Source: Chloroflexota bacterium (GTDB lineage: Bacteria > Chloroflexota > Dehalococcoidia > Lucifugimonadales > Lucifugimonadaceae). From it: DNA of 64,000 nucleotides. Location of the stretch: assembly GCA_027624075.1 (NCBI GenBank), contig JAQBUH010000007.1, positions 1 to 64,000 on the forward strand, written 5' to 3'. Within the stretch, counting starts at the first letter, position 1, and each line of letters opens with the position of its first letter. Under the pieces are notes generated by a model, which did no database searches, had not been told where the DNA came from, and worked only from the letters and a program-made list of their open reading frames with translations. Shown piece by piece: positions 1-36,673 of this stretch. A program made the translations under genes and the position numbers.

Positions 1-621
1 GGGTCCGACCCCCGGGATTGTTTGCAGCAGGTCTGAGATCGTGGAGTAGGTCTCATCTTCGCTGATGAGTTGCTCCAGTCTCTGGTCTGCCAGGCCGGCC
101 TGCTTCTCGAGGTGGCGGACCGTAGAACGCAGGCTCCGCAGCACCTCGGGATCGGGCCAGGGAGAATGGGTTGCGGCCTCAATCCGGTTCCGCACTGAGA
201 AGACCTGCTGCTCGATCGATTCCCGGTGTCGCCTGAGCGACTTGACCTGTTCCTGGAACCTCTCTGGTTGGTGTGAGGGTACGACCTGCTGGGTTTGGCC
301 GAGCGATGCGAGCACCTGGGCATCCACCCGGTCGGTCTTTGCCCGTCTGCCGAGTGAGTTCGAGTACGCCTTGGTCCTTGCGGGGTTGATGACGGTGAAG
401 GCTATATCGGAGTTTGAGAGCTCGTCCAAAAGCACATGGTGGTAGGTGCTGGTGGGCTCGATTACGAACTGGAACACCTTATTGCTGGCGTGCTTGGCCT
501 GCGCCCACTTGACGAGCTTACGGATGCCGAGACGTGAGTTAGTCAAAGACACCCGGTTGTCTCCTGACGGGTCCGAAACATCCAAGGTGGCTTTCGAGAC
601 ATCAATTCCTAGATAATGCAT
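1..621 (-). CDS. IS110-family transposase (DEDD recombinase), C-terminus beyond window
   Basis: This encodes the N-terminal 207 residues of an IS110-type DEDD transposase, which moves its element through a RuvC-like active site. The start is ATG at 621, beginning MHYLGIDVSK. The expected acidic residues are visible as D7 (LGIDVSK), E55 (FVIEPTSTYHH), and D97 and D100 (KTDRVDA). The last codons read LLQTIPGVGP, which is the beginning of the helix-hairpin-helix Transposase_20 region of this family, so the frame is intact up to the edge. IS110 transposases are usually 320-420 residues, so about half is missing. The whole 621 bases are open in this frame. Identification as IS110 is firm; the subgroup is not resolved. 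Confidence 0.9.
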   Translation of the reverse strand, partial: MHYLGIDVSKATLDVSDPSGDNRVSLTNSRLGIRKLVKWAQAKHASNKVFQFVIEPTSTYHHVLLDELSNSDIAFTVINPARTKAYSNSLGRRAKTDRVDAQVLASLGQTQQVVPSHQPERFQEQVKSLRRHRESIEQQVFSVRNRIEAATHSPWPDPEVLRSLRSTVRHLEKQAGLADQRLEQLISEDETYSTISDLLQTIPGVGP

Positions 622-870
622 GGCGGTAGGTTCCCCCTCTGAAACCCGAGTTTGGCTGTTAATTCAAGCCGTTTGCGTTTGCGACCTCGTAGATACGGCC
701 TCAGGGGCCAAAATGCCGTTCGCAATTCGCTGGGAGGAGGGGGGCCTATCTGAGTTATGGGCTATTACGCCCAAGGGCAAGCACGGCCTCTGATCCCTCC
801 TCGGATGTAAAGATACGAGGGCACGACTCGAAACTTCACCGTGAACTAGGCCCGGAACACTAACCAGTTG
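622..870 (-). ncRNA. candidate bridge RNA region of the IS110 element
   Basis: This is the noncoding stretch directly upstream of the transposase start. Established work on IS110 relatives (IS621) places a structured bridge RNA in the long noncoding end beside the recombinase gene. Small hairpins are visible: TGGGC/GCCCA at 758-773 and CCTCG/CGAGG around a 12-base loop at 799-820. The exact RNA ends, its guide loops and the core dinucleotide cannot be set from one copy. Function is inferred from position and family. Confidence 0.4.
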
Positions 871-1061
871 AACTCAATGACAGCCTTTTGACGAGTGGAA
901 TTCAGGGCTGTTTTGCCCTTGTGCCCTGGGTTCTGACAGTACCAAACACCTATCGCGTAACAGGGAAACGACGCACGGAACCTGCACGCGACCCATACGT
1001 CCGCTAAATGGTGGCGTCGAATCTCGTTTCCATAAGCGCTGTGCGAGTATCATTGGGACAT

Positions 1062-2606
1062 ATGCACCACGAATCCGGTCCCAGAGACTCCACACACTCC
1101 AAGACAGACGCAGACTTGAGCGCACATACCCCGCGACGAGACCAATCGGTCTCGCGAGACAGAAACCCCGGCAGACCACCTGGCAGACCACAGGGCAGTC
1201 CAACGGAAGACGAACGCAGAGCCGGCCAATCAGGCGACGGCGGCAGGAGCCGGATCCCCAGGCGACGCGACGCAGTAGTCCGCCGCTCTGAGCCGCCCGT
1301 CACCGAACGGCGAGAGCCGACTCAACGGCAGGGCCAACCGGGCCATGCTCAGCAGGCAGTTGCCGTTAGCTCCGCCGGTGGCGCCACTGGCAACGGGTCT
1401 GGGACTGGCCTGAGCAATGCGGGCCCCGCAGCCGCAAGCCCGGCAACGCAGCCAGAGGCCAGACCACGGTACATCCGCTGGGGGATGATCGACCTCACCC
1501 CCGAGATCGCAGACTCCATCGCCGCGATGGGCTACCGTGAGCCCTCTGAGATCCAGCGGATCGCCATCCCGCCTCTGCTCGCGGGCCGTGATGTCGTCGG
1601 CCAGGCTGTGACAGGCTCCGGCAAGACCTCCGCCTTCGGCATACCCATGTGCGAATCGGTCGACCCCAACTCGCGCCGCGTGGAAGGTCTCGTACTCGTG
1701 CCCACGCGAGAGTTGGCGCAGCAGGTGGCGAAAGAGATCGCAACCGTCGGGGCAAAGCTCGGCGTGCGCGTCGTGGCCGTATACGGCGGAGAGCCAATCA
1801 ACAAGCAGATAGAGCTGCTTGAGCGGGGGGCGCCAATCGTCGTCGGCACACCTGGCCGGCTCAAGGACCACATGTCACGCCGCACACTCGACCTCGGCGG
1901 CGTGCGCTTCGCCGTGCTCGACGAGGCTGACGAGATGCTGGACATCGGCTTTGCGGATGACATGGAGTTTATCCTTCGCCACACCCCGGCATCCCGCCAG
2001 ACGGCGCTCTTCTCCGCCACCATCCCTGGCTTCATCCTGAAGCTTATCCGCCGCTACCTGGACGACCCGGTCTGGGTGAAGCTTGTAGACAAGTTCGACG
2101 GCATCGAGACCGCAGCCGAGGTGACGCAGTACTACTACGAGGTTGCAGAGCGGGACAAGATACGGGCGGCTCGAGTGGTGCTGGACGAGATGCCTGAGCT
2201 TGCTCAGGCGCTGATCTTCCGCAGAATGCAGATAGGAGTCGACAGGCTGGCCAGCGACCTTGACCGGGCAGGCTACCCGGTCAAGGGGATCCACGGCGGC
2301 ATGTCACAGCGCGACCGCGACCGCGTGATGAACGCTTTCCGTGACGGCTCACTGCGCGTGCTGATCGCCACGAACGTCGCAGCGCGCGGCCTCGATATCT
2401 CGACCATCACGCACGTCATCAACTACGACATGCCTGACAACGTCGAAGAGTATGTCCACCGCGTTGGCCGGACCGCCCGCATGGGCAAGGCAGGCACCGC
2501 GGTCAGCTTTGTCGGCGAGCACGATTACGAGATCCTGGGGAAGATTGTGGAGAGGGTCGGCGAAGACATAGTCGAGCGCCGCCTGCTCAAGATGTACGGC
2601 GGCTGA
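1062..2606 (+). CDS. DEAD-box ATP-dependent RNA helicase
   Basis: This is an RNA-dependent ATPase that remodels RNA duplexes, likely in ribosome assembly or mRNA turnover. Counted from ATG 1062, the Q motif lies at about 160 (GYREPSEIQ), motif I is AVTGSGKT with GSGKT at 185-189, DEAD is at 287-290, motif III is SAT in LFSATIP, and motif VI is HRVGRTAR at about 466. The core is complete and the protein ends shortly after it, in LLKMYGG. The odd part is the first 140 residues, a low-complexity segment rich in Arg, Gly, Pro and Gln. Such RNA-binding tails are more often C-terminal. The start is uncertain: ATG 1008 and ATG 1485 are also in frame, but 1485 would cut close to the conserved aromatic upstream of the Q motif. 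The gene stands alone. Confidence 0.92.
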   Translation: MHHESGPRDSTHSKTDADLSAHTPRRDQSVSRDRNPGRPPGRPQGSPTEDERRAGQSGDGGRSRIPRRRDAVVRRSEPPVTERREPTQRQGQPGHAQQAVAVSSAGGATGNGSGTGLSNAGPAAASPATQPEARPRYIRWGMIDLTPEIADSIAAMGYREPSEIQRIAIPPLLAGRDVVGQAVTGSGKTSAFGIPMCESVDPNSRRVEGLVLVPTRELAQQVAKEIATVGAKLGVRVVAVYGGEPINKQIELLERGAPIVVGTPGRLKDHMSRRTLDLGGVRFAVLDEADEMLDIGFADDMEFILRHTPASRQTALFSATIPGFILKLIRRYLDDPVWVKLVDKFDGIETAAEVTQYYYEVAERDKIRAARVVLDEMPELAQALIFRRMQIGVDRLASDLDRAGYPVKGIHGGMSQRDRDRVMNAFRDGSLRVLIATNVAARGLDISTITHVINYDMPDNVEEYVHRVGRTARMGKAGTAVSFVGEHDYEILGKIVERVGEDIVERRLLKMYGG

Positions 2607-3539: not shown

Positions 3540-4364
3540 CTAAGACTGACCCTGCAGCTTTCGCCACTCCTCAGCCAGGTCTATGCAGCGCATGAAGCTG
3601 ACCTGCGGCCGCTCCTTGATGTGGCGGACCAGGCGGTCCAGCGCCTCCAGCCTGGCAAAGCGGCCCGTCGTGTGCGGGTGCATCGTCAGCATGAACGCCC
3701 GCCCCGCCCGGTATGCGCCGTCGAACTCCCACTCCCAAGCCGTCAGCACGTCCTGCGGAGTTGCCATCGGCGCGGTGCGGCCGGCCACAGGCGCGTAGGT
3801 GTAGTACGGCGCGTCATCCAGCGACCAGTGGACAGGCAGCTCGACAAGCCGCCGGTCCGGGTCGCCAACGAGGTACGGCACGTCGTCGCCCATCAGGCTC
3901 GAGTCATAGACGAACCCGCGCTCGTGCAGCAGGTTGAGCGAGTCTGCCGAAAGCTCCCATGACGGCGACCTGTACCCGCGCGGCCGCTCGCCTGTGATGC
4001 GTTCCAGGATGTCCGAGCCGTGGTCGAGGATCGCGCCCTCGTCCTCGCCGGGGCCGAGCGAGGATGGCGGCTCGTGCAGGTAGCCGTGGTGGGCTATCTC
4101 GTGGCCGAGCGCGGCGATGTCTCGGACCAGCTCTTCGTTGCGCTCGGCGACCCAGCCCGGCACGAAGAACGTGGCGGGGATGGAGTGCCGGGCGAGCAGT
4201 TCGAGGATGCGGCGCGTGCCGACCTTTGGGCCGAACTCACCCATTGAGATGACGCTCGGGTGGTCTGCCAGCTCAGGGTTGCGCCGCAGCGTTGCGGACG
4301 GGCCGTCGATATCGAAGGTCAGCGTGACGACGCACTGTGTGCGGTCCTGCCACATGCCGGTCAT
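3540..4364 (-). CDS. polysaccharide deacetylase family protein (PuuE/peptidoglycan deacetylase-like)
   Basis: This is a NodB-homology carbohydrate esterase 4 fold hydrolase. The 274-residue protein shows the metal-site elements: TLTFDIDGPS near residue 17 (Asp pair), HEIAHHGYLHEP near 90 (the HxxxH zinc ligands) and RGYRSPSWELS near 130. The C-terminal MLTMHPHTTGR holds the late His motif. Its resemblance is to the cytosolic PuuE/allantoinase-like branch, since there is no signal peptide. The start at 4364 is well supported by AAAGGAG eight bases upstream. It is the last gene of a leftward set after the Gfo/Idh/MocA and enolase-superfamily genes, suggesting use of a modified sugar or amide. 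The substrate is not predictable. Confidence 0.85.
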   Translation of the reverse strand: MTGMWQDRTQCVVTLTFDIDGPSATLRRNPELADHPSVISMGEFGPKVGTRRILELLARHSIPATFFVPGWVAERNEELVRDIAALGHEIAHHGYLHEPPSSLGPGEDEGAILDHGSDILERITGERPRGYRSPSWELSADSLNLLHERGFVYDSSLMGDDVPYLVGDPDRRLVELPVHWSLDDAPYYTYAPVAGRTAPMATPQDVLTAWEWEFDGAYRAGRAFMLTMHPHTTGRFARLEALDRLVRHIKERPQVSFMRCIDLAEEWRKLQGQS

Positions 4365-36322: not shown

Positions 36323-36559
36323 GTTCGGTCTCGCAGCCGGTCAAACAGTTGTGCCTGCGCCGGTTGTTCCTGAGCCGGATGCCGCAGGAAGATTCTTGCT
36401 CTTCAGTTTCGGACCTGCTGACAAGCATCCTAGCAACGCCCGGTAGCTGTAGCAATTGGCGTTGACCGTCTGGAGTTGACAGGGTTTCGTCATGTTGCAA
36501 CACTTCGCGCAATGGCGCCGGGCTGATTTCACATGCCACGCCAGACGGAAAATAGAACA
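36323..36559. other. divergent promoter region
   Basis: The 237-base gap between the SirB1-like gene and the TPP riboswitch. It should hold the promoters of both the leftward gene and the thi transcript. No motif stands out. Confidence 0.4.
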
Positions 36560-36654
36560 CGCGGTGGGGAGCTCGGAACAGCCGGGCTGAGAGGGCGAAC
36601 GATGATTCGCCGACCCATGAACCTGAACTGGGTAATTCCAGCGGAGGGACTGCG
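36560..36654 (+). promoter_or_regulatory. TPP riboswitch (thi box)
   Basis: The aptamer matches the thi-box consensus in order: GTGGGGAGC, GGGCTGAGAGG, ACCCATGAACCTGAACTGGG, TAATTCCAGCGGAGGGA. The P1 stem CGCGGT/ACTGCG closes it (36560-36565 with 36649-36654, one G-U). It binds thiamine pyrophosphate and switches off the downstream transporter genes, in keeping with an uptake role for a thiamine precursor. Confidence 0.96.
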
Positions 36655-36673
36655 GCACATCAGCAACAATCTG

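What the first reader, a model, noticed from the sequence alone, without database searches (positions are those of the whole stretch)
1..870. IS110 transposase with a putative bridge RNA region upstream
The DEDD residues (D7, E55, D97, D100) and the intact frame define an IS110 recombinase. About 250-380 noncoding bases precede it, where IS110-group elements carry a bridge RNA that specifies donor and target. Hairpins at 758-773 and 799-820 are visible. If this is a bridge RNA, the element would be a natural RNA-guided recombinase from a poorly sampled lineage.
Basis: partly seen in the sequence, partly recalled or inferred. Interest (0 to 1): 0.6.

Follow-up and report, generated by a model that had tools for sequence, protein, structure and literature searches.

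The report
RNA-guided jumping gene inside another's end
A mobile DNA element at the edge of this Chloroflexota contig carries a bridge RNA whose two guide loops match the element's own ends and the place where it sits, the end of another mobile element, so it is very probably a natural RNA-guided recombinase of a known kind with an unusual target.

Summary
The finding holds up. Window 1-819 (minus strand) is the left part of an IS110-group element: a DEDD recombinase cut off by the contig start (207 of about 325 codons) and a 198-bp noncoding left end. Bases 803-675 fold into two stems with internal loops, as in the IS621 bridge RNA. A covariance model from five sequences hits 25 of 64 sources at E<0.01 (five are its own training sequences); 26 of 31 pairs show changes on both sides. 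The donor loop reads the element's own ends (ACGGCAT|CT, CT|CGTA). The target loop reads the flanks: over 26 insertions left guides match their own target at 4.96 of 7 bases, 2.73 when swapped; right guides 3.71 of 5, 1.36 swapped (n=14). IS621, not in the model, gives its published left guide. A matching right end lies on contig C41 of the same genome; joining the flanks at the CT core gives 142 bp, the length of an intact element with inverted ends elsewhere. Such ends also bound an IS6-family insertion sequence. So the target is the terminal inverted repeat of another mobile element. New member of a known kind; expression and activity are untested.

The parts
1..621 (-). IS110-group recombinase gene, first 207 codons, cut by the contig start; a matching last 31 codons and right end lie on contig C41 of the same genome (25605-25722, minus)
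   Evidence: NCBIfam NF033542 'IS110 family RNA-guided transposase' 107.5 bits for this fragment (below the 140 cut-off for whole proteins); 191.6 bits for the full-length relative L009
818..819 (-). CT core at the left element boundary
   Evidence: boundary from the alignment of three copies with unrelated flanks
675..803 (-). bridge RNA, structured part (covariance model R1, 129 positions; the window is one of its five training sequences)
734..802 (-). target-binding stem-loop
774..782 (-). left target guide GCUUGCC|CU
   Evidence: matches left target TCGTGCC|CT at 5 of 7 plus core
758..773 (-). apical hairpin UGGGC-GUAAUA-GCCCA of the target-binding loop
750..758 (-). right target guide AUAACUC|AG, reads CT|GAGTTAT on DNA (base 758 is shared with the apical stem)
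   Evidence: matches CT|GAGTT next to the right end on contig C41, 5 of 5 plus core
675..730 (-). donor-binding stem-loop
711..720 (-). left donor guide AACGGCAU|UU, reads the right end GACGGCAT|CT of the element (first base differs; core C would pair with U as wobble)
686..695 (-). right donor guide UAUCUACG|AG, reads CT|CGTA at the left end
622..674 (-). spacer between the RNA model and the start codon
820..943 (.). larger part of a 142-bp element with inverted ends that the IS110 element split; terminal inverted repeat at 926-943 (minus) is the far end

Best explanation
An IS110-group insertion sequence (1189 bp in relative L009) that moves by bridge-RNA-guided recombination. The RNA lies in the left noncoding end. 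Its second loop pairs with the element's two joined ends in the circular form (donor); its first loop pairs with a target, about GCTTGCC-CT-GAGTT. The recombinase joins donor and target at the CT dinucleotide without duplicating target bases. In this genome the copy sits in the terminal inverted repeat shared by an IS6-family insertion sequence and short non-coding elements with the same ends, so one mobile element uses RNA guidance to land in the ends of others. Shown: gene family, boundaries, conserved RNA structure, guide matches to both ends and to the target, restored 142-bp site. Inferred by homology with IS621: RNA expression, protein binding, a circular intermediate, and that pairing causes the choice of target.
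For: DEDD domain and IS110 model matches; relative L009 aligns over residues 1-318 of 325 with IS621 and ISCro4 of solved structure. The noncoding end is more conserved than the gene. One covariance-model hit in the 64-kb window (E=1.8e-34, a training sequence); 25 of 64 sources hit at E<0.01, five of them training sequences. Covariation on 24 matches: 91.2% of cells paired, 26 of 31 pairs changed on both sides, against 7-13 of 28-31 when slid by 1-3 columns and a mean of 18.7 in shuffles, 0 of 500 reaching 26. Left guides vs own left target 4.96/7 against 2.73/7 swapped, n=26; right guides 3.71/5 against 1.36/5, n=14; permutation p at the floor of 5e-5 for both, also without the window family and IS621. 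IS621, not in the model, gives ATCGGGCCT and CT|ACGC; ATCGGGCCTAC is the published loop specificity (PMC11208160, passage). Empty site: joined flanks of the own copy = 142 bp, equal to the intact element at C48:16842-16983, 106 of 142 identical against a maximum of 57 in 2000 shuffles. Relative L008: joining its two flanks gives a frame open for about 170 codons across the junction, while the other two frames hold many stops.
Against: The window copy is split over two contigs with a gap of roughly 260 bp of coding sequence (judged by L009's length), so integrity and linkage of the two ends are inferred. Own left target matches only 5 of 7; 1.9% of CT sites in the window do as well, so the left guide of this one copy is not strong evidence alone. 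For L008 and L009 the left guide matches at 2 of 7 in the normal register and at 7 of 7 and 5 of 7 only with one extra base before the core; L008's right guide matches 3 of 5 (GAGTT against GATAT). L009's flanks look rearranged. A search for the predicted 14-base target in the own genome gave 18 matches, all at 2 mismatches, 8 of them in the repeat, against 12 for the reversed control, so the guide alone does not single out the repeat. The promoter at the joined ends is in the same register as in IS621 but no better than shuffles (332 of 1000 as good; IS621 itself 272 of 1000). Single-sequence fold z is weak. IS621 scores only E=0.05 with the model.
Confidence: 0.93

Rival explanations
1. The copy in the window is a dead remnant: the RNA and guides are real by descent, but this element no longer moves.
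For: Contig break inside the gene; only one IS110 gene matched in the genome; mismatches in the left guide; a bridge RNA relic (63.7 bits) exists in relative G067 on C164.
Against: No stop or frameshift in the 207 codons in the window or in the last 31 on C41; the RNA is better conserved than the gene; three right ends of this clade, one here and two in G052, abut such repeats with different outer flanks (only about 55 bp of each G052 copy is held).
Confidence: 0.15
2. The noncoding region is only a regulatory leader (antisense RNA or attenuator of the recombinase gene), with no guide role.
For: Leader hairpins before transposase genes are common (general knowledge, no call); single-sequence folding is unremarkable.
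Against: A leader would not match four separate DNA sequences: left and right element ends and left and right targets; matches follow each element's own target across 26 insertions and drop on swapping.
Confidence: 0.04
3. The guide matches are chance or come from the way the boundaries were chosen.
For: The boundary motif CT[TC][GA]TAW was set after seeing a first pass, and 30 of 56 model hits were dropped before the count. Related elements are in the set.
Against: The boundary motif and the donor loop do not use target information; swapping is the control; four elements match 7 of 7 and seven more 6 of 7, one of these IS621; the 142-bp restored site and the open frame across L008's joined flanks are independent of the guides.
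Confidence: 0.02

Closest known systems
IS621 (IS110 group; bridge RNA system of Durrant et al. 2024, PMC11208160)
   Same: DEDD recombinase (about 32% identical to relative L009), bridge RNA in the left end, target loop before donor loop, core CU of the left guide directly before UGGG, CT core, target in a repeated element
   Different: Core in the left donor guide is UU in the window clade, CU in relatives L012 and L082; target is the inverted end of IS6-type elements, not REP; host is Chloroflexota
ISCro4 (solved structure 9t56)
   Same: Best sequence match of relative L009 among solved structures, E=2.6e-42
   Different: Different sequence; not compared at RNA level here
IS4321 and IS5075 (IS1111 group, target Tn21 inverted ends; only the title of Partridge and Hall 2003 seen, in a reference list)
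   Same: Land in the terminal inverted repeats of other transposons
   Different: Most IS1111 elements carry the predicted RNA in the right end and have longer subterminal repeats (PMC11208160 section 12); here it is in the left end

Membership tests
[quoted passage not shown]
   76.2 bits, cut-off 29; D7 E55 D97 D100
IS110 family, IS110 group | C-terminal domain PF02371 with conserved serine | tested here: inconclusive
   PF02371 met in complete relative L009 (71.5 bits, cut-off 21.3); most of this part of the window copy falls in the contig gap; the serine was not examined
IS110 family, IS110 group | Long noncoding left end with bridge RNA of two internal loops | tested here: met
   198 bp; model and covariation
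IS110 family, IS110 group | Donor loop matches the element's own ends | tested here: met
   ACGGCAT with right end on C41, CT|CGTA with left end
IS110 family, IS110 group | Target loop matches the flanking target, core included | tested here: met
   Window 5/7 left; 5/5 right on C41; set of 26 and 14 with swap control; L008 and L009 fit on the left only one base off
IS110 family, IS110 group | Insertion without target duplication beyond the core | tested here: met
   Joined site 142 bp = intact 142-bp element, given that C41 and C43 ends are one insertion; open frame across L008's joined flanks
IS110 family, IS110 group | Circular intermediate; RNA expressed and bound by recombinase | not testable with these tools
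   No expression data; junction promoter match not above shuffles
IS1111 group | Bridge RNA in the right end | tested here: not met
   In L009 only 15 bases lie between the stop codon (3978) and the CT core (3994-3995), leaving no room for an RNA there

The most novel reading that the evidence does not exclude
A bridge RNA has been tuned by evolution to the inverted ends of resident IS6-type insertion sequences and their short non-autonomous relatives, so an RNA-guided element lives on other mobile elements; and this clade tolerates a one-base shift between left guide and core, as in L008, where the left guide matches 7 of 7 one base away from the CT.
Probability: 0.45. Interest if true: 0.5.

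Novelty: new member of a known kind. Interest (0 to 1): 0.4.

Why it matters
It adds a Chloroflexota clade with readable guides, ends and targets, and a natural case where the target of a bridge RNA is the end of another mobile element. Because guide and target can be read together in a couple of dozen related elements (26), mismatch tolerance, right-guide length and register shift can be tested directly. The system type itself was published in 2024.

Tried and rejected
Rfam found no bridge RNA here: only one family, a TPP riboswitch, reached its gathering score in the whole window. The viral contig search found no relative. Single-sequence folding was not decisive. A promoter across the joined ends sits in the same register as in IS621 (TTGATT, 17 bases, TATCTT) but is no better than shuffles, so I do not count it. 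A first guide pass mis-set the boundary of L012 and left gaps in guides; the second pass replaced it: 26 of 56 model hits kept, 30 dropped (12 core letters not CU/AG, 10 target-loop core not aligned, 6 no boundary motif within 70 bases, 2 boundary at contig end). I did not check for each kept hit that a recombinase gene follows it. The covariation count used 23 of the 25 sources with E<0.01; L079 and L063 were left out. L009 was first read as a clean target; its left flank is an IS6-like gene broken at the element and not resumed on the right, so its target is not reliable, yet it stayed in the count of 26 and lowers it. The genome-wide search for the predicted target did not single out the repeat. 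Paper searches: bridge RNA, IS110 and IS621 (4 papers); IS110, terminal inverted repeat and bridge RNA; IS110, Chloroflexi and insertion sequence; IS5075, terminal inverted repeat and Tn21 (10 of 28 listed); IS110, MITE, target site and IS6 family; bridge RNA, recombinase and IS1111. None listed describes this element by title or start of abstract; apart from PMC11208160 only listings were seen, so absence in print is not established.

Full report
WHAT IS THERE. The window begins at base 1 of contig C43 of its genome. On the minus strand 621-1 runs an open frame of 207 codons with D7, E55, D97, D100, matching Pfam PF01548 and, below its whole-protein cut-off because it is cut, NCBIfam NF033542 'IS110 family RNA-guided transposase' (107.5 bits, cut-off 140). 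The relative L009 has 325 codons, 82% identity over the shared part, both IS110 domains, NF033542 at 191.6 bits, and aligns over residues 1-318 with ISCro4 and IS621 of solved structure. The host is taken to be Chloroflexota: relatives L008 and L009 are titled 'Chloroflexi bacterium', and genomes G068 and G067, placed in the window's family, hold contigs of the same lengths.

BOUNDARIES. Window, L008 and L009 share everything downstream of CTCGTATC and nothing clear upstream. So the left end starts at 819, 198 bases before the start codon. Identity to the window, for L008 and L009, is 140/145 and 136/145 in the RNA part (675-819), 47/52 and 47/51 in the spacer, 520/621 and 504/615 in the coding part, and 21/56 and 27/59 upstream. 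A DNA search of 250 genomes of the order found right ends too: in the own genome on contig C41, twice in G052, in G068 and G067. All five read GACGGCAT|CT|GA, followed by GTTCTGATAGATCC (own), GTTCTGACAGAACC (G052, both), TATATC (G068) and GCGTCC (G067). The L009 element is 1189 bp.

THE RNA. Bases 803-675 fold into a first stem (GAGGAGGG with CCCTCCTC) enclosing an internal loop and an apical hairpin at 773-758, then a second stem with its own internal loop. A covariance model from five sequences (window, L008, L009, and L012 and L082 from another family of the order) was run over 64 sources: 56 matches at E up to 10, 25 of 64 sources at E<0.01 including the five training sequences, and one match in the 64-kb window. 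On 24 matches at E<0.01 in 23 of those 25 sources, 26 of 31 pairs have changes on both sides and 91.2% of cells pair, against 7-13 pairs and 30-49% when the partner is slid by 1-3 columns; 0 of 500 shuffles reach these two values. That alignment was fitted to the structure, which favours it. IS621 scores weakly (E=0.05) but at the right place, and the positions that hold guides in the window hold ATCGGGCCU, GCGUAG and the donor guides in IS621, in line with the published ATCGGGCCTAC (PMC11208160, passages).

GUIDES AGAINST DNA. Donor loop: AACGGCAU|UU against the right end GACGGCAT|CT, and CT|CGTA against the left end. Target loop over all kept elements (26 of 56 model hits): own left target 4.96 of 7, swapped 2.73 of 7; right target (n=14) 3.71 of 5, swapped 1.36 of 5; no permutation of 20000 reached the observed sum in either test; without the window family and IS621 the values are 5.18 against 2.71 (n=22) and 3.58 against 1.22 (n=12). 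Four elements match 7 of 7 on the left and seven 6 of 7; the weakest match 1 of 7 (L023) and 2 of 7 (L008, L009). Related elements occur in the set, so the p value is approximate. The window itself: left 5 of 7, right 5 of 5 using the C41 end. L009 differs from the window at the fourth base of its right guide, and its right flank differs in the same way (GAGC against GAGT); at the fifth base guide and flank disagree. L008 and L009 do not fit on the left in the normal register (2 of 7 each) and fit with one extra base before the core (7 of 7, 5 of 7); 0.03 to 0.19% of CT sites in three sources reach 7 of 7 in either register. In L008 donor and target share TCT, so a core shifted by one base would give the same product; I cannot tell these apart.

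THE TARGET. The right flank on C41 begins with one half of GGTTCTGTCAGAACTCAG (read on the other strand). That 18-mer occurs 23 times in the own genome with up to 3 mismatches, against 1 for the reversed pattern, and continues as GGCACG in 14 of the 23. It bounds a 943-bp element with an IS6-family transposase (NF033587 210.9 bits, cut-off 125; PF13610; ends) and a 142-bp element at C48 (no gene search was made in it). The window flank 820-943 ends in another copy of it. Joining the window flank to the C41 flank with one CT gives exactly 142 bp, 106 of 142 identical without gaps to the C48 element in one orientation and 71 in the other; shuffles average 36, maximum 57 of 2000. This supports both that C41 and C43 carry the two ends of one insertion and that the insertion added no bases beyond the core. 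With some twenty copies of the repeat in the genome, linkage is not proven. Both G052 right ends also abut this repeat, so three of the five right ends do. The predicted 14-base target itself does not single out the repeat: 8 of 18 genome matches at 2 mismatches lie in it, against 12 matches for the reversed control. L008 sits in a different place: contigs C114 and C28 overlap by exactly 141 bases, and joining its flanks gives a frame open for about 170 codons across the junction; two stops follow before a 577-codon frame with histidine-kinase-like motifs (motifs recalled, no family search run).

HOW IT MOST LIKELY WORKS. By homology with IS621 (PMC11208160; outline, passages, and sections 5, 7 and 12 read), the element excises as a circle, expresses the RNA from the joined ends, and the recombinase uses the RNA to hold donor and target and exchange them at CT. 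The steps shown here are anatomy, structure and matches; expression, circle and catalysis are inferred. A promoter across the joined ends is in the expected register but not better than shuffles.

PLACE AMONG KNOWN SYSTEMS. The element meets the features of the IS110 group that could be tested, except that the C-terminal domain could be seen only in relatives, and it fails that of IS1111 (RNA in the right end). Targeting of transposon ends is known from IS4321 and IS5075 (title of Partridge and Hall 2003 in a reference list); here the same habit appears in an IS110-group element with a left-end RNA. The type of system is known; the clade and its target are what is added.

Noticed in passing
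window 36555-36666 +: TPP riboswitch, 65.6 bits, the only Rfam match in the window at gathering score.
   Followed up: no
own genome, 23 places, e.g. C5:86888-87830 and C48:16842-16983: A family of elements with shared inverted ends: a 943-bp IS6-family insertion sequence and a 142-bp element; none of the three pairs of ends viewed (C5, C21, C48) showed an 8-bp direct repeat outside (read by eye).
   Followed up: partly
L079 4310-4438 (G067 contig C164): Bridge RNA relic (63.7 bits) with recognisable donor loop but no aligned core in the left target guide.
   Followed up: no
L008 2775-2786 and L009 2795-2806: Left guides fit the flank only with one extra base before the CT core; bulge, shifted core or chance not resolved.
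   Followed up: partly
G068 contigs C114 end and C28 start: Contigs overlap by exactly 141 bases at the right end of the element, which suggests an assembly graph branch and possibly further copies.
   Followed up: no
window 1008-2606 +: Long open frame with DEAD-box helicase-like motifs next to the element (motifs recalled, no family search run).
   Followed up: no
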